Below, piece after piece: positions 5,227 through 19,750 of a DNA stretch of 34,961 bases (position 1 is its first letter; each line of letters starts with the position of its first letter). Origin of the DNA: Bacteroidales bacterium. GTDB taxonomy: Bacteria > Bacteroidota > Bacteroidia > Bacteroidales > UBA3824. The position numbers and the translations under genes were made by a program. The DNA lies in the NCBI GenBank assembly GCA_017964465.1, contig JAGCRY010000032.1, positions 1 through 34,961 of the forward strand. The letters run 5' to 3'. The notes beneath the pieces were generated by a model. The model saw nothing but the letters and a program-made list of their open reading frames with translations. It did no database searches and had not been told where the DNA came from.

Positions 5227-5535
5227 TTATATATCTTTTTTCAATGATTTAGGATTGCGTTTTGTGTTCCAGAGGTTTTCGAGGCGTATTTCGTCCTCGG
5301 CGATTGAATAGATTATTTTGAAATCTTTTTCAAAATTGATTGCACGATATTCCTTGCTTTTGCCTTGTAGCAAAGGTTCTATGCGGTAACTTTCGGGAAA
5401 CAATTTGAGACGGTTGAGGATGTTATCGTATTCGTCACGTTTTTTCTGTGCGACGGTCATGCCATAATTCAGCTGACAATATTCAAAAAAGTCCTCTATC
5501 CTTTCTTGAAACTTTTTAGACGTAGAGATTTTCAT
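5227..5535 (-). CDS. RelE/ParE-type toxin 1 of a type II toxin-antitoxin pair
   Basis: A 102-residue protein with the RelE/ParE layout: an N-terminal helical pair (about 5-50), the 'LFPESYRIEPLLQ' turn, then beta strands 'EYRAINFEKDFKIIYSI' and a C-terminal strand ending LWNTKRNPKSLKKDI. RelE-type members cleave mRNA on the ribosome and ParE-type members poison gyrase; the sequence alone does not decide which applies. The start ATG at 5535-5533 lies inside the end of the antitoxin gene (20-nt overlap), the usual coupling for such pairs. A longer frame reaching 5697 only shadows the antitoxin. The last 17 residues are identical to those of the second toxin (8887-9195), while the N-terminal half is clearly diverged. 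Confidence 0.85.
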   Translation of the reverse strand: MKISTSKKFQERIEDFFEYCQLNYGMTVAQKKRDEYDNILNRLKLFPESYRIEPLLQGKSKEYRAINFEKDFKIIYSIAEDEIRLENLWNTKRNPKSLKKDI

Positions 5536-5827
5536 ACTTTTTGAATAATTTGTCGATTCGTGCCTTGCTTTCTTCTTCTGTGTAGAAAAGTCCTTGTTTG
5601 AACTCCTCCTCGATTTCATCCATTTCTCGGCTTGCCTCCTCCGGCGTTTGCGGCGTAGGAAAGTCAAGGTCGATTTCGACATCGTCGTCGTCATCATCTA
5701 AAAAGTTCTCGTACTGATGGTTGTCAATGATAAACAGCAATTTAGTCAGGGACTGTGAATCGAGCCTCTGTACGCGGTCTATTACCTGACTTCTCAATTT
5801 CGGTGTATCTAATTCTGCGGTGAGCAT
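5516..5827 (-). CDS. Antitoxin 1, partner of the RelE/ParE-type toxin
   Basis: A 103-residue acidic protein upstream of and overlapping the toxin gene. The N-terminal half (residues 1-48) is a helical segment with regular leucines, ending in a run of aspartates (LDDDDDD). The C-terminal half is charged and helical (PEEASREMDEIEEEF), as expected of a flexible toxin-wrapping tail. No standard DNA-binding motif is obvious. Its first 48 residues are identical to those of the second antitoxin (9176-9484), but the tails differ. The ATG at 5827 is preceded at suitable distance by a Bacteroides-type promoter. I call it an antitoxin from size, order, overlap and the paralogous second pair. Confidence 0.8.
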   Translation of the reverse strand: MLTAELDTPKLRSQVIDRVQRLDSQSLTKLLFIIDNHQYENFLDDDDDDVEIDLDFPTPQTPEEASREMDEIEEEFKQGLFYTEEESKARIDKLFKKYENLYV

Positions 5828-5856
5828 AGTTTTTATTTTTTGTGTTTATGATAATG

Positions 5857-5887
5857 CAAATGTACAATAAAAAATGAAGATTGCAAA
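5857..5887 (-). promoter_or_regulatory. Promoter of toxin-antitoxin pair 1
   Basis: Read on the minus strand, the -33 box TTTG (5887-5884) and the -7 box TACATTTG (5864-5857) are separated by 19 nt, matching the Bacteroidota consensus TTTG/TAnnTTTG. The -7 box is 30 nt upstream of the antitoxin ATG. Confidence 0.65.
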
Positions 5888-5967: not shown

Positions 5968-6762
5968 ATGGCAGAAGAAAAGGACAACACTGTATATATA
6001 TCATACGCAAGCAAAAGCAAGAGAATCTATGATGAAATTGCGCAACACTATAATGTTGAAACCAATAGTGTTGACCACGAGAGAGATTCTTTTGTGGATA
6101 TGTTGTACAAACAGTTGACGGCTGAGGGCATACCTTGCAAACTTGATGACGTTGATGTGCAAGGCGGCAGCATCACAGAATTTGAGCAAGCTATTGGCAA
6201 CGCCAATTATGTCGTCGTTGTATTGAGCGACAAGTATTTCATCTCGCCGCATTGCATGTACGAATGGGATTTGATTCACAAGGACGCGGAAGTAAAGAAA
6301 ATATACTACGTCTATTTCACCGGCGAAACGATTCGCTGTGAAGATGGAACCGAATTTAAAGGAATTAATTGCCCAATAAAAGACGAACACAAAGATTATT
6401 ATCCGAAAGTAATCAAACCCGTATGGGAAAAAAGATACAAAAATCTAAGGGACGAACTTGATGAAACATATCGAGAATTGTCGGCTGTAGAAGCGTATTT
6501 TTGCAATGGAGATATAAATAAGAATAAAGATATTTCTTCACCAATCAGCAAAGCATATTTGTTCAAAAAATCTTTTGAGTCAATAACGAGCATATTGAAG
6601 AATGTTGCTGTTATCAAAGATACCAATGAGGGGGAAGAAAAAAAGGTTGTTCAGTACATTAAGAACAAATTGGGATGGAAGACAAATTCTGTATCTCCAA
6701 CATTAGGTGCGAAATCTGATGTAAGGAGTAAACTTCCGTCCGCCATTCTGTCCAAATTCTAA
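5968..6762 (+). CDS. TIR-domain part of a stop-interrupted TIR-STAND-FGE gene
   Basis: This 264-codon frame encodes a complete TIR domain. The first strand motif is VYISYAS (residues 9-15). The second block is 'DVDVQGGSITEFEQAIGNA' (about 61-79), and 'VVVVLSDKYFISPHCMYEW' (82-100) follows. Glu99 in the CMYE motif sits where the catalytic glutamate of NAD-cleaving TIR domains lies. After about residue 165 comes a charged linker. The frame stops at TAA 6760-6762, but the same frame continues at once with linker-like 'DSSFIPRDSDVKKV' and then the STAND NTPase. A single nonsense change therefore appears to split a formerly continuous gene of about 955 codons. It may still give a free TIR protein. 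The paralogue at 12131-15814 is unbroken and shares its start (MAEEK). Confidence 0.85.
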   Translation: MAEEKDNTVYISYASKSKRIYDEIAQHYNVETNSVDHERDSFVDMLYKQLTAEGIPCKLDDVDVQGGSITEFEQAIGNANYVVVVLSDKYFISPHCMYEWDLIHKDAEVKKIYYVYFTGETIRCEDGTEFKGINCPIKDEHKDYYPKVIKPVWEKRYKNLRDELDETYRELSAVEAYFCNGDINKNKDISSPISKAYLFKKSFESITSILKNVAVIKDTNEGEEKKVVQYIKNKLGWKTNSVSPTLGAKSDVRSKLPSAILSKF

Positions 6763-6792
6763 GATAGTTCATTCATACCTCGCGATTCGGAT

Positions 6793-8832
6793 GTGAAAAA
6801 AGTTGCAGAACTTTTGGATAAGAAAAAGGTTGTTAACATTACTGGCATAGGCGGCTGTGGCAAATCTACAGTTTCAATTTTGTATTTGGTTGGCACGCAA
6901 GACAAGGAAAGTAAATATACGAATGGTTTTCAGGACAGATATTCTTGCGTCACTGATATTATCATCAATAATGAAAAAAATGTTTATAAAGATTTTTGCG
7001 AAACATTTGTAGATGAAAGACATGTTGTCGAATATGTAAAACAACGTGTGAACGATACTCAGCCTGATTACTATCAGACTTTTTTGTCAATATTGCGTTA
7101 TCTCAATGATTGTCCGACAGAGGACAAGCCAATGCTTTTGGTTATGGATGTAAACGAAACAGCCAATTACGCGCAGGTTAAGGAAGTCATAAAAAAATTT
7201 GTTGATATTTGTAAAAATTGGAAACTCCTTGTTGTTTCACGGGAGGTGCTATGTGACGACAAACAAGATTTTATTGATATTTCGAGGGTCGATACTATTG
7301 AGTTCTCGTTCATCAAACGGTTGTTTTTGTATTATGTTGACAAGAAGGGGTTTCGGTCAAAGTGTGAGGCAATTGATGATAATGATTTAAAGATAATTTT
7401 TTCAAAACTTGGCAATTTGCCAGTATTGATAAGAGCTCTTGCTGATTTTTGGAATGCGGAATGTACTGTATCAAGTATTTTGGATTATTTGGGTGATGGA
7501 AATTTAAGTCCAGAGATTGAAGCGTTGCAGACACGTTCCGTTAATAAAGAAGGTGTAAAGGCTGAAATGTTGCAGACACGTTCCGTTAATAAAGAAAGTG
7601 TAAAGGCTGAAATATATAATCAGATAGGTAACTTTTTGAGTTTGTTGTGTATATTCAAGAATTTGCCTGACGGCCTTCACAAAAATATTGTGAGGTGTAT
7701 GATGCTTTGGGATGCTGATTATTATCCTAAAATGTTCATACAAAAAGCTGTTTTAGGTAATGACAGCATGAATCCGGTTTTCATTCAAGCTTTGTCAGAA
7801 CTTGAAAATAGATGTTTGCTTGACAGTCGTAAGGACTCAAATGATGTTTTGGAATACAAAATGCATGGTTTGATAGCGCAGACATGTCGAGAACAGGTTT
7901 TCGCTTCTCATAAAACTATCATTGATAGCAATACAGGGAAAAAGAAAGTTGTCGATAATCCTGATTATGAAGTTAACGCTCCATATCGTGATTTCTCCGA
8001 TTATATCAGAAACATTTGTAGTTACGTCTGTGACAGAAAGGGTTTTGATGAGGATTTTTTAAGGCTAATTAAGAATACACGTTTCTTAAAATTATATCAG
8101 TATAAAGGTTTCGATGACTTTTATTACTCATGGCTCGATAATCAATCGGGCTATTCTTCCAATATTGTCGACAATATTTCAGATAATCCTATTATCAATG
8201 ATTATGTTAAAAACATGGTTTTTGTTAAGCGAGGCAAAAATGTTTATAACGATTTTTATATCGGCAGAACGCAAGTTACGCAGGAACTATGGCAGACTGT
8301 TATGGGGTTTAATCCAAGTCATTTCACGCCGAAAGAAGACAAAATCAAAGCGCAAAGAATCGCAGATACGTCAAAGTTTCCTGTAGAGCAAGTTTCTTGG
8401 TTTGATTGTCTCGCATTTATAATGAAGCTTAACGAAAAGGCTCATTTAAAATTCCGTTTGCCCTCCGGGGCGGAGTGGGTATATGCCGCAGGTTGGAGGA
8501 AATATGGCGGTCGGAATATGTACAGTGGGTGTGATTATGAAGGACTATTAAGCAAATTTGCGTGGTTTGCTAAAAATTCGAAAAAAACAACGCATGAAGT
8601 CGCAACAAGACAGCCAAACGAACTAGGTATCTGCGATATGACTGGTAATGTTTGGGAATGGTGTCAGGATTTGTTTAAATCGTCGGGTTCTTCGCGCGTT
8701 CTCCGTGGTGGCTCGTGGAACGGCAACGCTATCAGCTGCTGCGTTTCTTACCTCTACTACAACGACCCTGGCAATAGGTTCAACGGCAGCGGTATGCGCC
8801 TCGCCCTGCCGTGCTCGCCGTTCCCCAGTTAA
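6793..8832 (+). CDS. STAND NTPase-FGE/C-type-lectin part of the interrupted gene
   Basis: This frame is in phase with the TIR frame before the TAA at 6760. The first available start is GTG 6793, with no distinct promoter, so separate translation is doubtful. It has a P-loop GIGGCGKST (residues 18-26), a Walker-B-like LLVMDVN (about 115-121), the VVSRE sensor-like motif, and a winged-helix/arm region. From about residue 475 it carries an FGE-sulfatase (formylglycine-generating-enzyme-like) domain with the hallmarks 'YIGRTQVTQELW', 'FRLPSGAEWVYAA', 'GNVWEWCQD' and 'RVLRGGSWN'. Unlike the paralogue it has almost no TPR-like region between NTPase and FGE. A 45-bp tandem duplication lies at 7525-7614. 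The C-terminus resembles a DGR variable region. Its activity is uncertain because the gene is broken. Confidence 0.8.
   Translation: MKKVAELLDKKKVVNITGIGGCGKSTVSILYLVGTQDKESKYTNGFQDRYSCVTDIIINNEKNVYKDFCETFVDERHVVEYVKQRVNDTQPDYYQTFLSILRYLNDCPTEDKPMLLVMDVNETANYAQVKEVIKKFVDICKNWKLLVVSREVLCDDKQDFIDISRVDTIEFSFIKRLFLYYVDKKGFRSKCEAIDDNDLKIIFSKLGNLPVLIRALADFWNAECTVSSILDYLGDGNLSPEIEALQTRSVNKEGVKAEMLQTRSVNKESVKAEIYNQIGNFLSLLCIFKNLPDGLHKNIVRCMMLWDADYYPKMFIQKAVLGNDSMNPVFIQALSELENRCLLDSRKDSNDVLEYKMHGLIAQTCREQVFASHKTIIDSNTGKKKVVDNPDYEVNAPYRDFSDYIRNICSYVCDRKGFDEDFLRLIKNTRFLKLYQYKGFDDFYYSWLDNQSGYSSNIVDNISDNPIINDYVKNMVFVKRGKNVYNDFYIGRTQVTQELWQTVMGFNPSHFTPKEDKIKAQRIADTSKFPVEQVSWFDCLAFIMKLNEKAHLKFRLPSGAEWVYAAGWRKYGGRNMYSGCDYEGLLSKFAWFAKNSKKTTHEVATRQPNELGICDMTGNVWEWCQDLFKSSGSSRVLRGGSWNGNAISCCVSYLYYNDPGNRFNGSGMRLALPCSPFPS
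7525..7614 (+). repeat. 45-bp in-frame tandem duplication inside the STAND gene
   Basis: Two adjacent 45-bp copies (7525-7569 and 7570-7614) encode LQTRSVNKEGVKAEM and then the same 15 residues with small changes (GGT to AGT at one codon, and a different last codon). Near identity points to a recent duplication. It lies between the NTPase core and the following helical region, where extra residues are probably tolerated. Confidence 0.85.
8693..8811 (+). other. DGR variable-region-like 3' end without a matching template here
   Basis: This stretch aligns in protein to the variable region at 15665-15786 (VLRGGSWN, A, C, VS, P, R, GMRL conserved). Its DNA cannot derive from the template at 17352-17473 by changes at adenines only, since several differences are at G, C or T (for example GCG CAG against GCT ATC). 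The codons at variable positions are almost all NNC (GGC, ATC, AGC, TGC, TAC, CTC, TAC, TAC, GAC, GGC, TTC, AAC, GGC, AGC), which is what mutated AAC template codons would give. I infer a variable region served by a different template, or one left behind after its DGR was lost. No GC-rich hairpin follows it, unlike the second copy. Confidence 0.6.
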
Positions 8833-8886: not shown

Positions 8887-9195
8887 CTAAATATCTTTTT
8901 TCAATGATTTAGGATTGCGTTTTGTGTTCCAGAGGTTTTCGATGATGATTTCGTTTTCGGTGATGGTGTAGATTATCTTGAACATTTTATCAAAATTAAT
9001 GGAGCGGTATTCCTTGTCCATATCTTGAAGCAATGGCTCAATGTGGTAGCTTTCGGGAAAAAGTTCCAAACGTTTGAGTATGCTTATCAGATGTTCATTC
9101 TTCTTGTTCGCCAAGGTCTTGCCATAATTCGTAACGCCGTAATCAAGATACTCGTCCCACCTCTCTTTGAATCTATCAGACAAGGTAACTTTCAT
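8887..9195 (-). CDS. RelE/ParE-type toxin 2
   Basis: A 102-residue paralogue of the toxin at 5227-5535, with the same length and layout. The C-terminal strand ENLWNTKRNPKSLKKDI is identical, LFPESYxIEPLLQ and KEYRxINFxKxFKIIY are shared, and the N-terminal 45 residues are much changed. The start ATG at 9195-9193 overlaps the end of the antitoxin gene by 20 nt, exactly as in pair 1. It converges on the TIR-STAND gene, which ends 54 bp away. RelE-type mRNA cleavage or ParE-type gyrase poisoning are both possible. Confidence 0.85.
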   Translation of the reverse strand: MKVTLSDRFKERWDEYLDYGVTNYGKTLANKKNEHLISILKRLELFPESYHIEPLLQDMDKEYRSINFDKMFKIIYTITENEIIIENLWNTKRNPKSLKKDI

Positions 9196-9484
9196 AACTG
9201 TTCAGTTTTTGATTGGTGTGAGCAATAAATTCGTCAAGCGTCATACATTTGCCTTGCCTGATTTCCTTCTCGATTTCTTCAATCTCTTTCCTTGCCTCCT
9301 CCGGCGTTTGCGGCGTCGGAAAATCAAGGTCGATTACAACATCATCGTCGTCATCCAAAAAGTTCTCGTACTGATGGTTGTCAATGATAAACAGCAATTT
9401 AGTCAGGGATTGTGAATCAAGCCTCTGCACGCGGTCTATTACCTGACTTCTCAATTTTGGCGTATCTAATTCTGCGGTGAGCAT
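9176..9484 (-). CDS. Antitoxin 2
   Basis: A 102-residue acidic protein whose first 48 residues are identical to antitoxin 1 (5516-5827), through the leucine-rich helix and the aspartate run. The C-terminal half differs and ends YESYLV. I start it at ATG 9484-9482 because that gives the conserved MLTAEL start and because the promoter at 9516-9546 lies just upstream; a longer open frame to 9589 would run through that promoter. Shared N-termini with diverged tails suggest common oligomerisation or operator recognition but toxin-specific neutralisation. That is an inference from the pattern of conservation. Confidence 0.8.
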   Translation of the reverse strand: MLTAELDTPKLRSQVIDRVQRLDSQSLTKLLFIIDNHQYENFLDDDDDVVIDLDFPTPQTPEEARKEIEEIEKEIRQGKCMTLDEFIAHTNQKLNSYESYLV

Positions 9485-9515
9485 GGTAGTTTCGTTTTTG
9501 TGGTTTTTGATAGTG

Positions 9516-9546
9516 CAAACGTAATAAATTTTTTTTATGTTGCAAA
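9516..9546 (-). promoter_or_regulatory. Promoter of toxin-antitoxin pair 2
   Basis: On the minus strand, the -33 TTTG (9546-9543) and the -7 TACGTTTG (9523-9516) are 19 nt apart, the same geometry as the promoter of pair 1. The palindromic 22-bp repeats (9583-9662) begin 36 bp further upstream. Confidence 0.65.
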
Positions 9547-9787: not shown

Positions 9788-9854
9788 GGGGAAATGCAGA
9801 AAAGATGGACGGAGGCAAATCCTAAAGTAAAAAATCCCTTAACTGAAAAAAAAA

Positions 9855-9886
9855 TTTGTATGGTTGAGATGCAATTATTATCTTTG
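9855..9886 (+). promoter_or_regulatory. Promoter of the SLATT-like gene
   Basis: The -33 TTTG (9855-9858) and the -7 TATCTTTG (9879-9886) are 20 nt apart. This places transcription start just before ATG 9923 and argues against the longer frame that opens at 9794. Confidence 0.6.
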
Positions 9887-9922
9887 GGCATCGAAAAATT
9901 CAAAAAATACAATACTAAAACT

Positions 9923-10882
9923 ATGGCACAAGAACCATCATCAAACCCAAAAAACGAGAAGGACATAACTGCCTTTGACGTTGAGAGTTACATTCAACAG
10001 AGGTGGAACTCGCAGCGTAACTATTTCAGCAAGACATCTGCCAAAAAGCAGAAAGCCTTCAACTTCTGTCAGATAACGATAATCATTTTGAGCGCGTTGT
10101 CGGTAACTGTTTTAACATTCGATTTGGATGCAAAGGTAATCAAAATCGTTTGTTCAATTCTTTCTTTGTTGGTGATAATCGTCTCGGGTATCGACAAACT
10201 CAAACAGTTTAGTGCCGAGTGGATCAAAGACCGCAAGGCGACCGAAAAACTCAAAAGCGAAATTTGCAAGTACAAGTTTGGCGTTGAACCTTACACTGTG
10301 CCTATCAAGTTGGCAGAGAAGAAAGATGAAGGCGGTGAGAAGAAAGAGGAAAGTGGAAAGAGTAAAGAGGAGAGTGGTGAGAAGAAACCGGAAGGCATTT
10401 CGGAGCGCACCAAATTCCTCTTGGAACGCCTCAACACTCTCGCCGAAAAATGCGAGGACGGCGGCATCCGCAGTTCTTACAAGGAAATCAAGGCAGAACT
10501 CGCCAACTACGTCGCCGGTACGAAGGAGTATGCCGACAAGGAAGGCAAAATTTCGTCCAAGGACAAGGATTTTGTGTCGCGTCTCAACTCCATTATGGAT
10601 GAATACGTGAAGATTGTGGAGGAGCAGAACATTTACAGCCGCATCAAAAACGAGATTTGCGACTTCTACACCGACAAGGGTGCATACAAGGTGGAGGAAA
10701 AGGCAAAACCCAAGCCCGCGCCCAAATACGTCATCACCGACAACGACCGTCTCTTTGTAACCCGCGTCGAGGAAATCATCGCCAAGGACGTCGAGGAATT
10801 TGAACAGGCCAAGTCAAAACTCGCCGAGATTGACGCTCAGATCGACAAACTCCTTGAGAGCAAGGGCGGAGGCAAGAAGTAA
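9923..10882 (+). CDS. Two-TM SLATT/DUF4231-like membrane protein
   Basis: A 319-residue protein starting at the ATG behind the promoter at 9855-9886 (an upstream in-frame ATG at 9794 would precede that promoter). A helical N-terminus (VESYIQQRWNSQRNYFSKTS) leads into two close membrane segments at about residues 45-66 and 72-90. After them comes IDKLKQFSAEWIKDRKATEKLKSE in pieces typical of SLATT (DUF4231) proteins, which are proposed pore-forming effectors in nucleotide-signal and conflict systems. A Lys/Glu/Ser/Gly-rich linker (about 130-155) precedes a long helical tail with recurring 'FxxRLNxIxxE'-like segments. It lies 49 bp upstream of the Fic gene and may be co-transcribed with it. The effector role is inferred from family and neighbourhood. 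Confidence 0.7.
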   Translation: MAQEPSSNPKNEKDITAFDVESYIQQRWNSQRNYFSKTSAKKQKAFNFCQITIIILSALSVTVLTFDLDAKVIKIVCSILSLLVIIVSGIDKLKQFSAEWIKDRKATEKLKSEICKYKFGVEPYTVPIKLAEKKDEGGEKKEESGKSKEESGEKKPEGISERTKFLLERLNTLAEKCEDGGIRSSYKEIKAELANYVAGTKEYADKEGKISSKDKDFVSRLNSIMDEYVKIVEEQNIYSRIKNEICDFYTDKGAYKVEEKAKPKPAPKYVITDNDRLFVTRVEEIIAKDVEEFEQAKSKLAEIDAQIDKLLESKGGGKK

Positions 10883-12130: not shown

Positions 12131-15100
12131 ATGGCAGAAGAAAAAATCAACATAGAACCGGTATATATATCATACGCAAGCAAAAGCAAGAGGATATATG
12201 ATGAATATGCCAAACATAAAGTTACGCTTGTTGACAACAGACAAGAGCGTGACACTTTTGTGAATAATTTGGAAAAAAGTCTTAAACTTCCAGGTATTAA
12301 TTATAAAATTGACAGGGAAGATGTCGAGGGCGGCAGTATTACCGATTTCGAGAATGAAATCGGCAATGCTGCAATCGTTGTTGTGGTTTTAAGCGACAAG
12401 TATTTTATCTCGCCGCATTGTATGTATGAGTTTGATATGATTCATAAAAGTAAAACGACACCCACTGGTAAGGTTAAGAAAATTTATTATACATATTTCG
12501 ATGGCGAGATTATAACTGCCGAGGACGGTACAGTGTTTAAGGGTGCTGATTTTCCTATGAAGAATATTAATCTTGATTATTACCATAAGGTTATACTGCC
12601 ATTTTGGAAGGAAAGGTTTGAAAAATTAAAAGAACAATATTTTAAGAGTGACAAGCATTGCAATTTATCAGACGTTGAGGCTTATTTTTGTAATCATGAT
12701 ACAAATGAGAAGTCTATCAAAAAGGATGGAAACCCTTATTTGTTCGAGACAACATTTTTGGATATGCACAATAAGTTAAGCGAAGTTTCACTTGTCAAAG
12801 ATGACAGAGATTTGGCTCAGTTTATAAAAGATCATATTCTCATAAACCAACCGAAGGTAACTGCCAAATATAACTGGGACAGGTTAGGTAATTTACAAGA
12901 GCGTAAGCCGTGCGTGGAAGGTTTGTTAAAAAAATTGCGCCAGTATCCATACGTAAATATCACTGGCGTAGGAGGTTATGGCAAAACTACTCTGGCTAAC
13001 TTATTGGTTTTTGACTCAGACAAAAAAATTAAGCCGCCATTTCTTAATGTCGCATATTTTGTGGTGGAAAATAATGTCAAGAAAGCGGTGGTTAATCAAT
13101 TCAAAAACTCTGATTTCTGCACACCCGAGTTAAAACAAAAGTTGGACAAATGGATTTCTACAGATTCACTTGATTCAAAGTACAAAGATGTGATGGAATG
13201 TTTAGGTAAATGCAGTTCTCTCGGTGATTGGATTAACCTTTTTATCCTTGACATCAACGACTACGACGTGGATTTGATGAAGTCTTTCGCTGATAAGTTG
13301 ATTGATAATAAAAACCAAACGGATGACACAAGACTCTATCCAAAGGGATGGAATGTTTTGTTTGTTTCGCGCGAGCCAGTTACTGACGATAAAAAAGTCT
13401 ATAATTTCAATATAGACTACAATATCGACAAAACCGACAAGATAAATAATGACATTGATTATCTTAAAGATATTTTTTCGATTGTAAAAGAGGAAAATTC
13501 ACGTATTTACAATAGTTATTATGATTGCAATGGTAAGCCTAATAAACAATTAATCCAACTGTTTGAATATCTAAGATATTCGCCTCAGTTGATTAAGATG
13601 TTATCCTTCAAGATTGATAAATACACAAAGGATGTCTATAAAGATTTGTTGGGCACAACAGAGAAAAAGGCTCGTGACAAGTATGAGAAATTCAATGAGG
13701 ATGAAATCAAGGACCAAAAAACAAGGACAAAGTACTTGCGCGACTATTTGAACAATCTCATCCGTTTAAACAAGTTATCAAAAGGTGAGCAACGTTTATT
13801 GACCTATTTCATGGTATGGCCTGCGGGCAGTGACATAAAGGGGGATGTTGTTAAGTGTCTGACAGAACAGTGCTGTGCAATCGAAACTGATGAACTGCGC
13901 GAATTGGCTTTTAAGGAAGCCGAATCCAAAGGTCATTTGATTTGCAAAAATGATTTTGTGTATTCGTTGCATGGAATGTTGGCAGATACTTTGAAGCAAC
14001 AATTTTTCGAGAGGTTTTCGTTCCCGTTGTTCCGATATTTATGGTATAGGTTTGGCGTATATAAACGTTTTAAACAGTACATTGTCAACTGTGAATCCGT
14101 ATTGAGCAAGGTGTCCCTCAATGATTTGGATTCATACGTCAACTGCATTGTCGAAAGTGTTTATAACAACGATATTGGAAACACTGATAATCTTAAAAAC
14201 CATCCAAAGTTACGTACGTTTACCGATATTAAGAACATCAAGAAGGAGATTGAGATTCTCGAACAACGCGGACAATCGTTTGATTTGGCTATTAAATATT
14301 TGAAATTAGGAGAGTTATATTACAATAATCCGAAGGATTATTCTAAATCAGATGCTTTAGTGTATATTCATAAGGCTGTAGAATTCCTTTCCTCTACGCT
14401 ATTTGACGGAGACACTACCTATGACAAGCCCGACAAACAGCGTTTTGAAAGTTTTGAAATGATTCAAGACTTAATTCAAGGCGTAAAAATTTCAGACAAT
14501 CGTTTGTGTGAGTTCATGGGAAATGTGTATTCGCGTATGGGCGATTGGTATTTCAGAGAAGATGATGACATTGCACTTGAAAAGTACAACCTGTCAATCA
14601 GATTTTTTGAAGATGAGTCTATCGACGATTATACAGATTTTTGTTCTTTTACAAAAAGGAATATTGCAAATGCATATTACAGATATGCTTTGATGTTGGA
14701 TCTAAGCAACAATAAAGCCAAATCAAGTTCCTTTTTTGTGGAAGCCGACCGTATCTGGGCATCTTTTTCTCCCGAAACCGAAGGCAACCTCAAAGGTTTT
14801 GTGAAGACTTCATACGGCATTTACGACCCTGAGTTTGGTTTCAAACTTGTCAAAGTAGAAAAGGGCAGTTTTGATATGGGCATTTCTGAAGAAGAAATAA
14901 AAAAATGCAAGCTCAATGATTATCAATTTGGACAAGATGAATTTCCTTGCCATTCTGTTGCTGTGGAAGAAGATTTTTATATTGGTATGTATCCTGTAAC
15001 ACAGGGTGAGTGGGAAAAATGTGTATCTATTATTAACAATAAAACGCAAATTCATCTTTCGGATTACAAAGCCATGCAAAAAGATGGTTACAATAATCAG

Positions 15101-15814
15101 CTTGCGTTTTTGCATAAAAGATACGGTTCACGAGTAAATCATCTTACGCAATATAAGTGCGATGGCATAGGTAATAACAATCCGATGAATTATGTAAGTG
15201 CAAAGGATGCTGATGATTTTATCCAAGGTATTAACGCCTTGGGAAAAAAATATACGCTTCCTACAGAAATCCAATGGGAATATGCCGCAAGAGGAGGTTC
15301 TCGTAACGAAAGGTTTCTGTTTAGTGGTGTAGATGAAATTGAATTGTGTGCTGACTCTGGAAAAGGTAGCATTACCGAGGACGGAAACACTGCATATGTA
15401 GTAGGACCTTCTGTAGTTGGTTCATTAAGACCAAATATTCTTGGTATTTATGATATGTCTGGTAACGTATATGAGTGGTGTCAGGATTGGTACAAGGCTG
15501 ATTGGTACAATGTGGGAGTAAATAGAGTTTGCTCTTTTAAAGATGTATCTGATGTGGATTATGTAGAACCATATTTAGAGAAATATTATTTCAATGGACA
15601 ACCTGTGTCTTCGTCTGATTTTATACGACGGAATTATGACCAATCATTTGTGTCTGATAGAATTCCCGCCCGTGTTATGCGTGGGGGCTCGTGGAACAGC
15701 CGCGCGCAGAACTGCCGCGTATCCGGCCGCTACGGGGGCAACCCCGGCGACCGCTCCGACGAGCTCGGCTTCCGTTTGTCTCTCAGTTTGCAAACCGAAA
15801 AAGAAGAAAAATAA
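12131..15814 (+). CDS. TIR-STAND NTPase-helical repeat-FGE/C-type-lectin receptor, DGR target
   Basis: An intact 1227-residue protein. Residues 10-150 form a TIR domain (VYISYAS; 'VVVVLSDKYFISPHCMYEF' with candidate catalytic Glu100). A STAND/NACHT-like NTPase follows, with P-loop GVGGYGKTT (279-287, Lys285), Walker-B-like LFILDIND (Asp374) and a VSRE motif. Residues about 640-890 are helical and TPR-like. From about 900 there is an FGE-sulfatase domain ('YIGMYPVTQGEW', 'YTLPTEIQWEYAARGG', 'GNVYEWCQDW', 'RVMRGGSWN'). Its last 40 or so residues (about 1179-1218) are the DGR variable region, with changed residues at 1190-1212. By family logic, ligand binding at the lectin-like end should trigger NTPase-driven oligomerisation and TIR action, possibly NAD cleavage. 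That mechanism is inferred. The HRDC and reverse transcriptase genes follow directly. The upstream paralogue (5968-8832) shares both ends. Confidence 0.92.
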   Translation: MAEEKINIEPVYISYASKSKRIYDEYAKHKVTLVDNRQERDTFVNNLEKSLKLPGINYKIDREDVEGGSITDFENEIGNAAIVVVVLSDKYFISPHCMYEFDMIHKSKTTPTGKVKKIYYTYFDGEIITAEDGTVFKGADFPMKNINLDYYHKVILPFWKERFEKLKEQYFKSDKHCNLSDVEAYFCNHDTNEKSIKKDGNPYLFETTFLDMHNKLSEVSLVKDDRDLAQFIKDHILINQPKVTAKYNWDRLGNLQERKPCVEGLLKKLRQYPYVNITGVGGYGKTTLANLLVFDSDKKIKPPFLNVAYFVVENNVKKAVVNQFKNSDFCTPELKQKLDKWISTDSLDSKYKDVMECLGKCSSLGDWINLFILDINDYDVDLMKSFADKLIDNKNQTDDTRLYPKGWNVLFVSREPVTDDKKVYNFNIDYNIDKTDKINNDIDYLKDIFSIVKEENSRIYNSYYDCNGKPNKQLIQLFEYLRYSPQLIKMLSFKIDKYTKDVYKDLLGTTEKKARDKYEKFNEDEIKDQKTRTKYLRDYLNNLIRLNKLSKGEQRLLTYFMVWPAGSDIKGDVVKCLTEQCCAIETDELRELAFKEAESKGHLICKNDFVYSLHGMLADTLKQQFFERFSFPLFRYLWYRFGVYKRFKQYIVNCESVLSKVSLNDLDSYVNCIVESVYNNDIGNTDNLKNHPKLRTFTDIKNIKKEIEILEQRGQSFDLAIKYLKLGELYYNNPKDYSKSDALVYIHKAVEFLSSTLFDGDTTYDKPDKQRFESFEMIQDLIQGVKISDNRLCEFMGNVYSRMGDWYFREDDDIALEKYNLSIRFFEDESIDDYTDFCSFTKRNIANAYYRYALMLDLSNNKAKSSSFFVEADRIWASFSPETEGNLKGFVKTSYGIYDPEFGFKLVKVEKGSFDMGISEEEIKKCKLNDYQFGQDEFPCHSVAVEEDFYIGMYPVTQGEWEKCVSIINNKTQIHLSDYKAMQKDGYNNQLAFLHKRYGSRVNHLTQYKCDGIGNNNPMNYVSAKDADDFIQGINALGKKYTLPTEIQWEYAARGGSRNERFLFSGVDEIELCADSGKGSITEDGNTAYVVGPSVVGSLRPNILGIYDMSGNVYEWCQDWYKADWYNVGVNRVCSFKDVSDVDYVEPYLEKYYFNGQPVSSSDFIRRNYDQSFVSDRIPARVMRGGSWNSRAQNCRVSGRYGGNPGDRSDELGFRLSLSLQTEKEEK
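15665..15786 (+). other. DGR variable region (VR)
   Basis: This 122-nt stretch aligns without gaps to the template repeat at 17352-17473 (offset 1687). Seventeen core differences (15699-15765) all fall where the template has A: 9 become purine G in single or double hits, and the others become C or T as well as G. They change 11 residues (eight Asn codons plus Arg and Asp sites among them) and one silently. One further mismatch, a template T against A at 15677, lies upstream of the core. The 3' end (GGCTTCCGTTTGTCTCTCAG) is identical in both copies and would serve as the homing initiation segment. Confidence 0.95.
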
Positions 15815-15831
15815 AAAAACAGAGGAGCAAG

Positions 15832-15872
15832 GATTTTCGAAGCTGGCGGCCTAAAGCCGCCGCGCGAAAATC
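15832..15872 (+). other. Hairpin/cruciform downstream of the VR
   Basis: Nested inverted repeats have outer arms GATTTTCG (15832-15839) and CGAAAATC (15865-15872) and inner arms GGCGGC (15845-15850) and GCCGCC (15856-15861) around a CTAAA loop. The structure starts 46 nt after the VR and ends 15 nt before the HRDC gene. DGRs are known to use a hairpin just downstream of the VR for target recognition. There is no T-tract, which argues against a terminator. Confidence 0.75.
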
Positions 15873-15887
15873 AGAGCGACGAAAAAA

Positions 15888-16394
15888 ATGAAAAAAATGG
15901 AATTAAAAGTATTCAAAATTTCCGCGAGTGGCGGCGGTCTGATGGAGGAGGAAATCAACAAGTTCCTCCGCAGCCATCGGATTATTCAGGTGACAAAACA
16001 GTTTTCGCCTGATGGCGGCGGCTACTGGACGTTCTGCATCGAATATTCCGAGAATGACGCTTCGTCAGGAAAGCCATTTGGAAAAAAGGAACAGAAGGAT
16101 GCCACGGAAGACCTGTCTGCCGAGGAGAAGGAACGGTACGAGAAATATCGCACAATTCGTAAGCGAGTAGCGAGCGAATTGGGATTCCCTGCCTATAATA
16201 TTTTCTACAATGAAGAACTTGCACAGATAGCAAAACTTCCTGTCGTGGATGCTTCGGTAGCCGAAATAGAAGGTGTTGCTCCATCGCGCATCAGAGACTA
16301 CCTGAAATATTTTTATACTGAAGTCGATACTCAAAATATTCAGCAAAATGCCACAGCGGGTCAACAATCTGATGGACGAAATTTGCCGTTTTGA
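15888..16394 (+). CDS. HRDC-domain DGR accessory protein
   Basis: A 168-residue protein between the DGR target and the reverse transcriptase. Residues about 4-55 form a small alpha/beta domain (MELKVFKIS, then 'GGGYWTFCIEYSE'). An acidic linker follows. Residues about 85-155 are an HRDC domain: 'YRTIRKRVASELGFPAYNIF', the LAQIAKLPVVD helix and 'IEGVAPSRIRDYLKYF', where the GV(A/G)xxR turn is typical. HRDC domains bind nucleic acid in RecQ helicases, and stand-alone HRDC genes are known as DGR accessories in place of Avd. It probably helps template RNA or target DNA handling. The start could be 15888 or the ATG at 15897. Its end overlaps the reverse transcriptase by 47 nt, suggesting coupled translation. 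Confidence 0.85.
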   Translation: MKKMELKVFKISASGGGLMEEEINKFLRSHRIIQVTKQFSPDGGGYWTFCIEYSENDASSGKPFGKKEQKDATEDLSAEEKERYEKYRTIRKRVASELGFPAYNIFYNEELAQIAKLPVVDASVAEIEGVAPSRIRDYLKYFYTEVDTQNIQQNATAGQQSDGRNLPF

Positions 16395-17343
16395 CAATCT
16401 CAACGAGGCTTTTCTTCGCGCTGCAAAAGGCAAGTCAGGTTTCTTTCCTGTCATTGCGTTCCGTGAGAATTATGACCTCAATATATATGAATTGGCGAGG
16501 CAACTTGCCGACGGCACTTTCAAATTTGGCAATTATCATTTTTTCACCATTTTTGACCCTAAAAAACGTCGTATTTGCGCAGCAAGTTTTCCTGAAAGGG
16601 TAGCGTTCCATGCATTGATGCGCGTATGCCATCCTTTTTTTGAAAACCGGCAGGTAGCCGACAGTTACGCTTCGCGGATTGGCAAAGGTACATACGCGGC
16701 GTTGGATAGGGCGCGGCACTTTGCGCGGAAATATCAGTTTTTTGCAAAACTTGATGTCACTAAATATTTTGATTCAATAAATCATACCATACTTTTCAGG
16801 ATGCTTTGCCGGATGTTTAAAGATGACAGGTTGCTTGATAGTTTTAATAAGATAATAAATTCGTATTCTGTTTGCGAAAACAGCGGGCTGCCCATTGGAA
16901 ACCTTACGAGCCAGTATTTGGCAAATCATTACCTGACATACGCCGACCGTTTTTTGTATGATGACTGTAAAATCCCCGGCCTTGTCAGGTATATGGACGA
17001 CACGCTGATATTCTCCAACGACAAAAGCCAAATCTTTTCGGCGGTGAGTGATTATGAAAAGTATCTTTCGGAAAAACTCGATTTGAAGATACATGCTCCG
17101 TCAGTCAACCGCACATGTTATGGTGCGCCATTCCTTGGTTATGTCGTATATTCCGACAAATTGAAGTTGAGCCAGCGTAGTCGCCATCGTTTCCGTGTGA
17201 AAATGGCCGTCCTTCAAAATCTTTACGATGATGGCATAATCAGTGAAAAAGAAATATCAAAGCGTTCAGGCTCTATGTTTGCATTTATAAACAAGGCCGA
17301 CACTTTTAATTTTAGACGATCTTTGAAGGGAATATACCTATAA
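16348..17343 (+). CDS. DGR-type reverse transcriptase
   Basis: A 331-residue reverse transcriptase. Visible motifs are the first catalytic aspartate in KLDVTKYFDSINH (Asp136), the DGR-characteristic GLPIGNLTSQ (residues 180-189) and the YMDD active site (215-218, Asp217 and Asp218). The enzyme copies the template repeat RNA into error-prone cDNA, misincorporating opposite adenines, and that cDNA replaces the VR. There is no maturase or endonuclease domain, so it is not a group II intron protein; retron enzymes usually carry YADD and need an msr/msd RNA, which is not seen. A second in-frame ATG lies at 16372. The stop is 8 nt before the template repeat on the same strand. Confidence 0.96.
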   Translation: MPQRVNNLMDEICRFDNLNEAFLRAAKGKSGFFPVIAFRENYDLNIYELARQLADGTFKFGNYHFFTIFDPKKRRICAASFPERVAFHALMRVCHPFFENRQVADSYASRIGKGTYAALDRARHFARKYQFFAKLDVTKYFDSINHTILFRMLCRMFKDDRLLDSFNKIINSYSVCENSGLPIGNLTSQYLANHYLTYADRFLYDDCKIPGLVRYMDDTLIFSNDKSQIFSAVSDYEKYLSEKLDLKIHAPSVNRTCYGAPFLGYVVYSDKLKLSQRSRHRFRVKMAVLQNLYDDGIISEKEISKRSGSMFAFINKADTFNFRRSLKGIYL

Positions 17344-17351
17344 TTATGAGA

Positions 17352-17473
17352 CCCGCCCGTGTTTTGCGTGGGGGCTCGTGGAACAACAACGCGCAGAACT
17401 GCCGCGTATCCAACCGCAACAGGAACAACCCCGACAACCGCAACAACGAAAACGGCTTCCGTTTGTCTCTCAG
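17352..17473 (+). ncRNA. DGR template repeat (TR)
   Basis: The adenine-rich template is 122 nt and lies directly behind the reverse transcriptase. Its core is a series of AAC codons in the frame of the VR, a bias that gives the widest amino-acid range when adenines mutate. About 30 adenines lie in the core and 17 of them are changed in the VR. It still reads as protein from ATG 17346 to TGA 17520-17522 (58 codons, starting MRPARVLRGGSWN), which suggests it began as a copied gene end. I treat it as RNA template, not as a gene. Confidence 0.93.
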
Positions 17474-17543
17474 CTCTCAAACAATCTCGGTTTGCGAACA
17501 AGGTATATCTCCCGTCCGCTGAAATAGGCGGCGAATCACCCCC

Positions 17544-17598
17544 GCGGAGTTTTTGGCGAGTAGGCTTGGTGCCGGAAGCGAAAGACTCCGCATTTTTT
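17544..17598 (+). terminator. Likely terminator of the DGR template transcript
   Basis: Arms GCGGAGT (17544-17550) and ACTCCGC (17585-17591) are followed by A and six T (17593-17598). The loop is long (34 nt), so the call is moderate. It would end transcription 125 nt past the template repeat and so define a structured 3' part of the template RNA. Confidence 0.5.
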
Positions 17599-17722
17599 GA
17601 TTTTATCCACCTCTCCCCCTCAAAATGGAGTGCTATTGTGTCCGTTTGTCCCCCTGAAAAATTTGCTGTTAAGGAAAAATATCCTTTTCTTTGCACAAAA
17701 CTTAACACTTAATAGCATAATT

Positions 17723-19750
17723 ATGAAACTTCAATTATTGACAGGCGCGCGTGCGCTTGCGACGGCTTTCACGGCATCGGCGCAGAGCCACGTGATGGAA
17801 GTCAACACCGCAAAGCCCGGCGCGGCGGTGCAGAGTACGATGTACGGCATCTTTTTCGAGGACATCAATTTTGCGGCGGACGGTGGTCTGTACGCCGAAA
17901 TGGTAAAAAACCGCTCGTTTGAGTTTCCACAGACCTTGATGGGATGGCGGACATTTGGCAACGTTCAGGTGAAGGACGACGGCCCTTTTGAGAATTGTCC
18001 TCATTATGTAAGGCTCGGCTATTCGGGACATCCGCACAAGCACACCGGCATTGAGAATGAGGGCTTCTTCGGCATCAATATCGAGGAAGGCAAGGAGTAC
18101 AGATTTTCCGTTTGGGCGCGTTGTCCCGAGGGCGGCAAGGCGACGGTGCTTGTACAGATTGTTGACAATGCATCTATGGGCGAGGTTCAGGAACAGGAAG
18201 TTTGCTACGTGGACGTTGTGGGCAGCGAGTGGAAAAAGTACACCGCAAAGTTCAAGGGCAAAGTTACAAACCCCAAGGCTTCGATGAGGATTTTCTTGCG
18301 TGGTTTTGACAAACAGCCCATCGTAACCACCGACCTCGAACACGTTTCACTCTTCCCGGTTGACACTTGGATGGGTCGCGAAAACGGTATGCGCAAGGAT
18401 CTTGCACAGGCATTGTGCGATATGAAGCCCGGCATTTTCAGGTTCCCCGGCGGCTGTATCGTGGAAGGCACGGATTTGGAGAGCCGTTATCAATGGAAAA
18501 ACTCCGTGGGTCCCGTTGAAAACCGCAAACTCAATGAAAACCGTTGGCACTACACCTTCGATTTCCGTTTTTATCCTGATTACTACCAGAGTTACGGACT
18601 TGGTTTCTACGAGTTTTTTGAACTCTGCGAGGATTTTAACTGCGAGGCTTTGCCGGTGATTAGTTGCGGCTTGGCTTGTCAGTTCCAAAATGAAAACAAG
18701 ACTCCCGGACAGCCCGATATGGAGGCACATTGCCCCATAGACAACCTCCAACCCTACATCGACGACGCTCTCGACCTCATTGAATTTGCAAACGGCGACC
18801 CCTCCACAAAGTGGGGCAAGGTACGCGCCGAGATGGGCCATCCGCGTCCGTTCAACCTCAAATTCCTCGGCGTCGGCAATGAGCAGTGGGATTACAAGGA
18901 CAATCCAGTCTTCACCGAAAGGCTCAAAAAATTCACCGCTGCCATCCGCGCCAAGTACCCGAATATCAAGTTGATAGGCACAACGGGTCCCGATTCTGAG
19001 GGCGCAAAGTTTGATATGCTCCAACCCAAGATGAAGGAGATTGGAGTTGACCTCTATGATGAACATTTCTACCGTCCCGAATCGTGGTTTTTGGATGGTG
19101 TCAATCGTCATCGTTATGATAATTATGACCGCAAAGGCCCGAAGATTTTTGCGGGCGAGTACGCTTGTCACGGCAAGGGCAAGAAGTGGAACCATTACGA
19201 GACCTCGCTCCTCGAAGCCGCCTTTATGACTGGCATTGAGCGCAATGCGGATGTTGTTCAGATGGCAACGTATGCGCCTCTGTTTGCGCACGTTGAAGGT
19301 TGGCAGTGGAGACCCGACGCCATTTGGTATGACAATTCGAGGTCGTTCCGCTCGGTTTCGTATTACGTTCAACAGATGTATTCCCTCAACAAGGGTCACA
19401 ATGTGTTGCCGCTCTTGATGAACAAAAAGGTTGTTGCCGGCGACCCCGACCAAGACGGACTTTTTGCAAGTGCCGTGGTTGATAATAAGACCAACGAGGT
19501 AATTGTAAAGGTTGTCAATACGAGCCGTCAGTCGCAGCCTATCACCTTGAATCTCAAAGGAATGAAGGGCAATCATACCGTGAAGACCATTACCCTTACC
19601 TCCAACGATATGGACGCCGAAAACTCCCTCGACAATCCCACCCGCATCGTTCCCATTGACGGCACAGCATCCGCCGACGGCGACAAGATGACAGTTTTGT
19701 CGGACAACGTTCCGGCGATGACGTTCAGGATTTACAAGGTGAAGAAGTAA
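17723..19750 (+). CDS. GH51 alpha-L-arabinofuranosidase, exported
   Basis: A 675-residue glycoside hydrolase of family GH51, which removes terminal arabinofuranose from arabinan or arabinoxylan with retention. The acid/base is Glu387 in GVGNEQWDY and the nucleophile is Glu479 in FAGEYACHG. The N-terminal carbohydrate-binding-like part (about 25-240) begins 'STMYGIFFEDINFAADGGLY', and the C-terminal beta domain follows the barrel. I start it at ATG 17723 because this gives a signal-peptide-like N-terminus ending TASAQS; the open frame to 17597 adds nothing family-like. The signal core contains an arginine (LLTGARALATAF), which is unusual. A strong terminator follows at 19772-19815. It marks the return to ordinary metabolic genes after the island. 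Confidence 0.93.
   Translation: MKLQLLTGARALATAFTASAQSHVMEVNTAKPGAAVQSTMYGIFFEDINFAADGGLYAEMVKNRSFEFPQTLMGWRTFGNVQVKDDGPFENCPHYVRLGYSGHPHKHTGIENEGFFGINIEEGKEYRFSVWARCPEGGKATVLVQIVDNASMGEVQEQEVCYVDVVGSEWKKYTAKFKGKVTNPKASMRIFLRGFDKQPIVTTDLEHVSLFPVDTWMGRENGMRKDLAQALCDMKPGIFRFPGGCIVEGTDLESRYQWKNSVGPVENRKLNENRWHYTFDFRFYPDYYQSYGLGFYEFFELCEDFNCEALPVISCGLACQFQNENKTPGQPDMEAHCPIDNLQPYIDDALDLIEFANGDPSTKWGKVRAEMGHPRPFNLKFLGVGNEQWDYKDNPVFTERLKKFTAAIRAKYPNIKLIGTTGPDSEGAKFDMLQPKMKEIGVDLYDEHFYRPESWFLDGVNRHRYDNYDRKGPKIFAGEYACHGKGKKWNHYETSLLEAAFMTGIERNADVVQMATYAPLFAHVEGWQWRPDAIWYDNSRSFRSVSYYVQQMYSLNKGHNVLPLLMNKKVVAGDPDQDGLFASAVVDNKTNEVIVKVVNTSRQSQPITLNLKGMKGNHTVKTITLTSNDMDAENSLDNPTRIVPIDGTASADGDKMTVLSDNVPAMTFRIYKVKK

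What the first reader, a model, noticed from the sequence alone, without database searches (positions are those of the whole stretch)
12131..15814. DGR diversifies the tip of a TIR-STAND immune-like receptor
The DGR target is a 1227-residue protein with TIR, STAND NTPase, helical repeats and a lectin-like FGE end, the layout of an NLR with a self-rewriting sensor. Reverse-transcription-driven diversification of such a receptor would be a prokaryotic route to somatic-like receptor variety. DGR targets linked to NTPase and conflict domains have been reported in comparative surveys, but this TIR-STAND-TPR-FGE form in a Bacteroidales island with Fic and SLATT may be little described. This is the best candidate for an undescribed system in the window.
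Basis: partly seen in the sequence, partly recalled or inferred. Interest (0 to 1): 0.92.

Follow-up and report, generated by a model that had tools for sequence, protein, structure and literature searches.

The report
Self-mutating tip on bacterial immune-like receptor
A gut-type bacterium carries a gene-rewriting element that changes the tip of an immune-receptor-like protein inside its own cells; such pairings have been predicted before, but this one looks like a separate capture, with a second rewritten receptor beside it.

Summary
ORF 12131-15814 (TIR, STAND NTPase, helical region, FGE) ends in a variable repeat (15665-15786). It differs from a template repeat (17352-17473) at 17 of 31 template adenines and 1 of 91 other bases. 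HRDC and reverse-transcriptase genes lie between them: a canonical HRDC-type diversity-generating retroelement (DGR). The architecture is not new: STAND-FGE proteins with TIR and DGR links were described by Kaur et al. 2021 and Doré et al. 2024.

What this work adds:
(1) The neighbouring TIR | STAND-FGE gene (5968-8832) is probably a second DGR target. Its tail shares a framework with two other species' tails and varies at template-adenine columns (p=1e-10). Its template was not found.
(2) The RT's clade diversifies mostly secreted proteins, while this receptor looks cytoplasmic, differs in GC and belongs to a local TIR-STAND family. This suggests DGR capture.
(3) At the same site a sister species lacks HRDC-RT-TR but keeps the DGR hairpin beside a different STAND-FGE gene.
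(4) SLATT (2TM effector) genes recur near these receptors.

Best reading: a diversified intracellular STAND sensor of an abortive conflict system. The immune role is untested.

The parts
12131..15814 (+). DGR target: 1227-aa TIR-STAND-helical-FGE receptor
   Evidence: ORF, Pfam, VR at its 3' end
12152..12631 (+). TIR domain; putative catalytic Glu100 in SDKYFISPHCMYE
   Evidence: Pfam TIR/TIR_2; Glu aligned with plant SNC1 TIR (weak match) and conserved in 13 TIRs of the genus
12923..14050 (+). STAND NTPase (NB-ARC/nSTAND3-like)
   Evidence: weak Pfam hits; Walker A, VSRE and LHG/MHG motifs shared with the paralogue at 36% overall identity
14846..15778 (+). FGE (C-type-lectin subtype) sensor domain
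   Evidence: PF03781 E 3e-40; best PDB profile match is DGR protein TvpA 2y3c, E 6e-69; model pLDDT 74
15665..15786 (+). variable repeat (VR)
15832..15872 (.). inverted-repeat hairpin downstream of VR (GATTTTCG..GGCGGC-CTAAA-GCCGCC..CGAAAATC)
   Evidence: similar GC-rich hairpins in related DGR loci L044, L047, L049, L051, L085
15888..16394 (+). HRDC-domain accessory gene
   Evidence: PF00570; HRDC gene beside RT in nearly all of the 80 related loci
16348..17343 (+). DGR reverse transcriptase
   Evidence: RVT_1; IGNLTSQ and YMDD
17352..17473 (+). template repeat (TR); 12 AAC codons, no codon can mutate to a stop
15888..17600 (.). HRDC-RT-TR cassette, absent at the same site in sister species G393
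   Evidence: L164 6602-6667 matches 15822-15887 and L164 6669-8818 matches 17601-19750
5968..6762 (+). paralogue TIR part (264 aa), ends at an in-frame TAA
6793..8832 (+). paralogue STAND-FGE part (679 aa), same frame as 5968
8679..8830 (+). second VR-type tail (family B); its template was not found in the incomplete assembly
9794..10882 (+). SLATT/DUF4231 2TM protein, recurrent neighbour of TIR-STAND loci in the genus
   Evidence: PF14015; also L154, L164, L147
10932..12041 (+). Fic protein (DUF4172-Fic), conserved in G393

Best explanation
This is an intracellular, NLR-like conflict receptor whose ligand-binding tip is rewritten by a resident DGR. The RT, with HRDC as accessory, copies the TR RNA with errors at adenines. 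The cDNA replaces the VR at the 3' end of the receptor gene, changing up to about 15-17 residues on the lectin-fold binding face of the FGE domain. When a variant binds an invader-derived (or non-self) ligand, the STAND NTPase should oligomerise and activate the TIR effector, probably NAD+ cleavage or nucleotide signalling. The SLATT membrane protein nearby may be a second effector, giving abortive infection or dormancy. Shown by sequence: the DGR, the adenine-specific VR, the domains, the second VR-type paralogue tail, and presence or absence of the cassette at the same site. Inferred: cytoplasmic location, ligand sensing, effector activity and anti-phage role. The DGR cassette seems to have been captured from a gut Bacteroidales lineage that diversifies mostly secreted proteins (inference).
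For: TR/VR statistics: 17/31 A versus 1/91 non-A; the single non-A difference implies recent homing. TR is stop-proof with 12 AAC codons. Hairpin after VR, an element required for efficient homing in the Bordetella phage DGR (PMC3240598). Intact RT and HRDC. FGE best matches TvpA, a DGR variable protein, and its VR aligns without gaps with the TvpA VR; variable residues are solvent-exposed in the solved proteins (PMC6328139). All 89 VR-bearing targets found in the related loci match the window FGE, with swapped N-termini including NACHT, nSTAND1, caspase, calcineurin-like and kinase. Paralogue tail is VR-like across three species: 24/33 A columns vary versus 11/95 (p 1e-10). Of 11 inspected targets of close DGR relatives, 10 begin with a signal-like hydrophobic segment by eye (exception: kinase L046), whereas the receptor starts with its TIR. 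GC is 34-38% in most of the receptor versus 43-46% in VR-HRDC-RT-TR. RT sits in a 13-row clade (SH-aLRT 100) apart from the other STAND-linked RTs. SLATT near TIR-STAND genes in window, L154, L164, L147.
Against: No functional data. A single MAG snapshot: no population variation of this VR could be tested. The STAND match is below Pfam's curated cut-off (motifs support it) and the model of residues 1-910 is unusable (pLDDT 38). The paralogue has an in-frame TAA between TIR and NTPase. PADLOC gives no hit for the target. SLATT is closer to the paralogue than to the DGR target. The RT tree is the quick version, and the FGE tree has weak supports on long branches.
Confidence: 0.6

Rival explanations
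1. The DGR diversifies a STAND receptor used for kin or non-self recognition (like fungal heterokaryon incompatibility), not for anti-phage immunity.
For: Same anatomy predicts both; Doré et al. 2024 raise this alternative. Sensors are species-private while engines are exchanged: in G387/G402 the TIR-NTPase block is about 98-99% identical but the FGE region falls to about 68-89%.
Against: A predicted cytoplasmic receptor would need imported non-self ligands; no secretion or delivery genes were recognised in the island.
Confidence: 0.15
2. A relic: the DGR is no longer active and the present VR is fixed.
For: Paralogue has a nonsense codon; sister species G393 has a DGR-type hairpin with no RT at the same site; sparse presence in the genus (5 of 18 genomes with any RT match at 1e-10).
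Against: RT, HRDC, hairpin and reading frame are intact; 1/91 non-A mismatches mean little time has passed since the last homing.
Confidence: 0.15
3. The FGE end is an enzyme (formylglycine-generating type) and the VR tunes its substrate.
For: Pfam name FGE-sulfatase; fold matches true FGEs.
Against: The position aligned with the first catalytic cysteine of FGE (SFLC) is residue 1190, a variable site (Asn in TR, Ser in VR) (alignment by eye); the best profile match is the binding protein TvpA.
Confidence: 0.03
4. Variation in the paralogue tail (family B) and in the short FGE proteins (family C) comes from ordinary positive selection at binding residues or recombination, not from retrohoming, so the window holds only one DGR target.
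For: No template found for B or C; genomes with family C have no DGR-type RT, only RTs with a different motif.
Against: Framework bases stay constant: L179 versus L180 differ at 17/50 A columns and 0/105 others, although the rest of the gene is 6% different; family B frameworks match while the G393 and window proteins are only 36% identical in the FGE region.
Confidence: 0.2

Closest known systems
STAND NTPase-FGS conflict systems of Kaur et al. 2021 (eLife 10:e70394, PMC8195603)
   Same: STAND NTPase fused to C-terminal FGS/FGE, N-terminal effector may be TIR, DGR association noted, proposed as analogues of hypermutating immune receptors
   Different: They describe the four-helical (Avd-type) accessory, here HRDC; they stress multicellular bacteria; no second VR family, capture or relic site in the section read
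DGR-diversified antigen sensors of Thiohalocapsa PB-PSB1 and other multicellular bacteria (Doré et al. 2024, PMC10907252)
   Same: DGR targets with STAND/NACHT and C-terminal CLec/FGE, often two targets per locus, some with N-terminal TIR or peptidase
   Different: Those RTs are clade 5 of mostly multicellular bacteria; here the RT groups with gut/rumen Bacteroidales RTs whose scanned targets lack STAND domains; 'Bacteroid' does not occur in that paper's main text
Treponema denticola TvpA DGR (HRDC type; PDB 2y3c)
   Same: FGE-type variable protein with C-terminal VR; DGR with HRDC accessory (PMC4891356)
   Different: TvpA is a single-domain variable protein (PMC6328139), without TIR or STAND part
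Antiviral STAND (Avs)/bacterial NACHT proteins
   Same: effector-NTPase-sensor layout (as described)
   Different: their sensors are not DGR-rewritten; PADLOC models gave no hit to this target

Membership tests
Diversity-generating retroelement | RT of DGR type with IGxxxSQ and YxDD | tested here: met
   IGNLTSQ, YMDD in A1 alignment
Diversity-generating retroelement | TR/VR pair with adenine-specific mismatches | tested here: met
   17/31 A versus 1/91 non-A
Diversity-generating retroelement | accessory gene (Avd, HRDC or MSL) | tested here: met
   HRDC PF00570
Diversity-generating retroelement | hairpin downstream of VR | tested here: met
   its spacing (about 58 nt) is longer than in BPP-1
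Diversity-generating retroelement | mutagenic homing occurs | not testable with these tools
   needs culture or deep reads
STAND-FGS/DGR conflict sensor (Kaur 2021; Doré 2024) | STAND NTPase fused to C-terminal FGE | tested here: met
   FGE strong; STAND by motifs and sub-threshold Pfam hits
STAND-FGS/DGR conflict sensor (Kaur 2021; Doré 2024) | N-terminal effector or adaptor | tested here: met
   TIR above Pfam cut-off
STAND-FGS/DGR conflict sensor (Kaur 2021; Doré 2024) | VR lies in the FGE sensor | tested here: met
STAND-FGS/DGR conflict sensor (Kaur 2021; Doré 2024) | RT in clade 5 (mostly multicellular bacteria) | tested here: inconclusive
   RT falls in a gut Bacteroidales clade within a tree that also holds Chlorobiota/Saprospiraceae STAND-linked RTs; no reference clade labels at hand
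STAND-FGS/DGR conflict sensor (Kaur 2021; Doré 2024) | defence function | not testable with these tools
   experiment needed; it is also untested for the published members
NAD-consuming TIR effector | conserved catalytic Glu | tested here: met
   E100 in SDKYFISPHCMYE, aligned with SNC1; activity untested
Formylglycine-generating enzyme | catalytic cysteine pair | tested here: not met
   first Cys position is variable residue 1190 (Ser here, Asn in the TR)

The most novel reading that the evidence does not exclude
A gut-type Bacteroidales genus runs a shared, DGR-driven repertoire of TIR-STAND receptors: several receptors per genome have tips rewritten from more than one template (some possibly supplied in trans), and receptors, SLATT partners and the DGR cassette are exchanged as modules at one hotspot between a TamB-like and a GH51 gene, giving bacteria not known to be multicellular a somatic-like receptor pool.
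Probability: 0.3. Interest if true: 0.85.

Novelty: new variant of a known kind. Interest (0 to 1): 0.62.

Why it matters
If it works as read, a gut-type Bacteroidales lineage uses reverse transcription to generate immune-receptor variety in advance inside the cell, outside the multicellular bacteria for which this was proposed. The paired sites (window versus G393) and the TIR-STAND-FGE relatives without a DGR in the same genus give natural with/without comparisons, so the claim that DGR-rewritten STAND sensors act in defence becomes testable by genetics and by VR allele counts in gut metagenomes.

Tried and rejected
Target TIR-STAND part searched in plasmids, phages and IMG/VR: no relatives. 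Profile search of the whole receptor across the phylum gave only FGE-region matches outside the own genome among the rows listed. Structure of residues 1-910 with two sequences: unusable. Phage origin of this DGR: IMG/VR RTs are at most 42% identical in their best segment (most 31-38%) versus 54% for cellular ones. Templates of tail families B and C on viral contigs: no exact framework match. RTs in genomes with family C: not DGR type by motif. Rfam: nothing in 5-20 kb. FGE-enzyme reading rejected by the missing catalytic Cys. Promoter/terminator scan not above chance.
Full report
Observation. The window lies in an incomplete Bacteroidales MAG (64% complete, 218 contigs; order inferred from its relatives). 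ORF 12131-15814 encodes 1227 aa with TIR (residues 36-123 in Pfam), a P-loop STAND NTPase (Walker A GVGGYGKTTL at about 279-288, VSRE, LHGML in the position of the MHD motif), a helical region and a C-terminal FGE domain. Pfam gives no TPR. The last 131 nt repeat at 17352-17482 with 84% identity. In the 122-nt core all but one of 18 differences face template adenines (17 of 31 A; 1 of 91 others; p 1.6e-11). Eleven codons between 1190 and 1212 change the amino acid. The TR has 12 AAC codons and no codon that adenine mutagenesis could turn into a stop in the VR frame, whereas the other frames have some. HRDC (15888-16394) and RT (16348-17343, IGNLTSQ and YMDD) lie between VR and TR. A GC-rich hairpin lies about 58 nt after the VR core. 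Similar hairpins lie at similar distances in several of the closest DGR loci; such an element is required for efficient homing in the Bordetella phage DGR (PMC3240598).

Comparison with other DGRs. Eighty RT relatives were fetched from named genomes, and an A-biased TR/VR detector was run on them. Eighty-nine VR-bearing target ORFs, the window's included, match the window FGE domain, and nearly all loci have the HRDC gene beside RT. The N-terminal parts are swapped: PEGA, BACON, kinase, LRR, caspase, calcineurin-like-NACHT, nSTAND1, nSTAND3, DUF4062-NACHT, KAP. No other target in this set carries a TIR by the genus TIR profile, though TIR proteins lie in the flanks of L089 and L067. The closest RTs (52-54%) come from rumen-type Prevotella/Bacteroidaceae MAGs. 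The window RT sits in a 13-row clade (SH-aLRT 100) whose other scanned members diversify PEGA/BACON-type proteins or a kinase, while the other STAND-linked RTs lie elsewhere (quick tree only). Ten of 11 inspected targets of close relatives begin with a signal-like hydrophobic segment (by eye), while the receptor begins directly with its TIR. GC changes from 34-38% in most of the receptor to 43-46% from the VR through the TR. The FGE tree without the VR places the window FGE with the FGE of a sister-species STAND protein (0.88, long branch), not with the targets of its RT's relatives. Together these suggest that a DGR cassette was captured by a local TIR-STAND-FGE receptor (inference).

Local receptor family. 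In the 18 genomes of the genus there are many TIR and TIR-STAND genes. Related proteins without a DGR nearby include TIR-nSTAND3-FGE plus TIR-FGE (L153), TIR-NB-ARC-FGE directly beside SLATT (L154), TIR-FGE (L156), separate TIR and nSTAND1-FGE genes (L124, L150), and a TIR-STAND without FGE (L147, 41% identical to the target's N-terminal part). SLATT/DUF4231 genes occur near TIR-STAND genes in the window, L154, L164 and L147. In the G387/G402 pair the TIR-NTPase block is 98-99% identical against a background of 77-87%, and identity drops at the start of the FGE domain: engine and sensor evolve as separate modules.

Second diversified tail. The upstream TIR (5968-6762) and STAND-FGE (6793-8832) ORFs are in one frame, separated by a single TAA, and are 36% identical overall to the target. 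Split TIR and STAND-FGE genes exist in relatives, so this may be a pseudogene or a working pair. Its last 152 nt share a framework with the tail of a STAND-FGE gene in G393 and of a fragment in G397, although the G393 protein is only 36% identical in the FGE region. Using adenine columns of the two known templates (window and G393), 24 of 33 A columns vary among the three tails against 11 of 95 others (p 1e-10). A similar stop-proximal inverted repeat (GAC-A[CT]TCC-GTC with A and T runs) follows in all three (by eye). The query used was a hand-made consensus with adenines put in at variable sites, so it served as a probe only; the statistics use genomic sequences. No template for this family was found.

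Island history. TamB-like (652-5223) and GH51 (17726-19750) genes are adjacent in G398 (L166), so 5.2-17.6 kb is an insertion zone. In G405 the SLATT gene joins directly to window position 17601. In G393 Fic is followed by SLATT, a TIR gene and a different STAND-FGE gene, then a 66-nt piece matching 15822-15887 (the DGR hairpin), then 17601 onward. HRDC-RT-TR is thus absent there with clean ends. Because the hairpin is typical of DGR loci, loss in G393 is likelier than gain in the window, but the direction is not proven. Two related ParE-like toxin-antitoxin regions (about 5228-5871 and 8888-9528, 77% identical) flank the paralogue and could mediate exchange.

Mechanism. Shown: the DGR anatomy and its targeting of the FGE tip. 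From families: FGE-type DGR proteins bind ligands through solvent-exposed variable residues (PMC6328139); the window VR aligns without gaps to the TvpA VR, and the FGE catalytic Cys site is a variable position. Inferred: ligand binding, STAND oligomerisation, TIR NADase, a possible SLATT pore, and abortive infection.

Known or new. Kaur et al. 2021 and Doré et al. 2024 already describe the kind. The variant here has the HRDC accessory, an RT apart from the other STAND-linked RTs of this set, a cytoplasmic-looking TIR receptor from a local family, a second diversified receptor beside it and a relic site in a sister species. Function is untested.

Noticed in passing
L179 7229-8017 (-), L180 6579-7364 (-), L181 7959-8762, L182 8135-8923: A short, signal-bearing 261-267 aa FGE protein in four species of the genus varies at template-adenine columns (27/33 versus 6/95; L179/L180 17 versus 0 of 105) although no DGR-type RT was found in those genomes; template and RT are missing or act in trans.
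   Followed up: partly
L124 2525-9525 (-) versus L150 5842-12812: TIR plus nSTAND1 block is 98-99% identical between two species whose neighbouring genes are 77-87% identical, with identity dropping at the FGE boundary: recent exchange of the engine, private sensors.
   Followed up: partly
window 5228-5871 and 8888-9528: Two related ParE-like toxin-antitoxin regions (77% identical, same orientation) flank the paralogous receptor; G405 has a single copy and no receptor there.
   Followed up: partly
window 6760-6762: In-frame TAA separates TIR and STAND-FGE parts of the paralogue; could be a nonsense mutation or a natural split as in G393.
   Followed up: no
L089 186-2867 and L067 12184-15342: Proteins with a C-terminal TIR lie in the flanks of other DGR loci (L089: directly upstream of the target).
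   Followed up: no
L122 2199-12793, L108 6702-8609: DGR targets with N-terminal caspase-like (Peptidase_C14) domains and FGE tips; L122 has four VR-bearing genes.
   Followed up: no
L127 12197-17633 (-): Same-genus genome G255 has a DGR whose target is a 1416-aa BspA-type LRR-FGE protein (18 of 18 mismatches at TR adenines).
   Followed up: partly
L185-L190, L192, L193: Several genomes of the genus, G000 included, carry a related group of non-DGR reverse transcriptases (about 405-470 aa, MAGVPVSAFFANIYL and YSDD) of unknown role.
   Followed up: no
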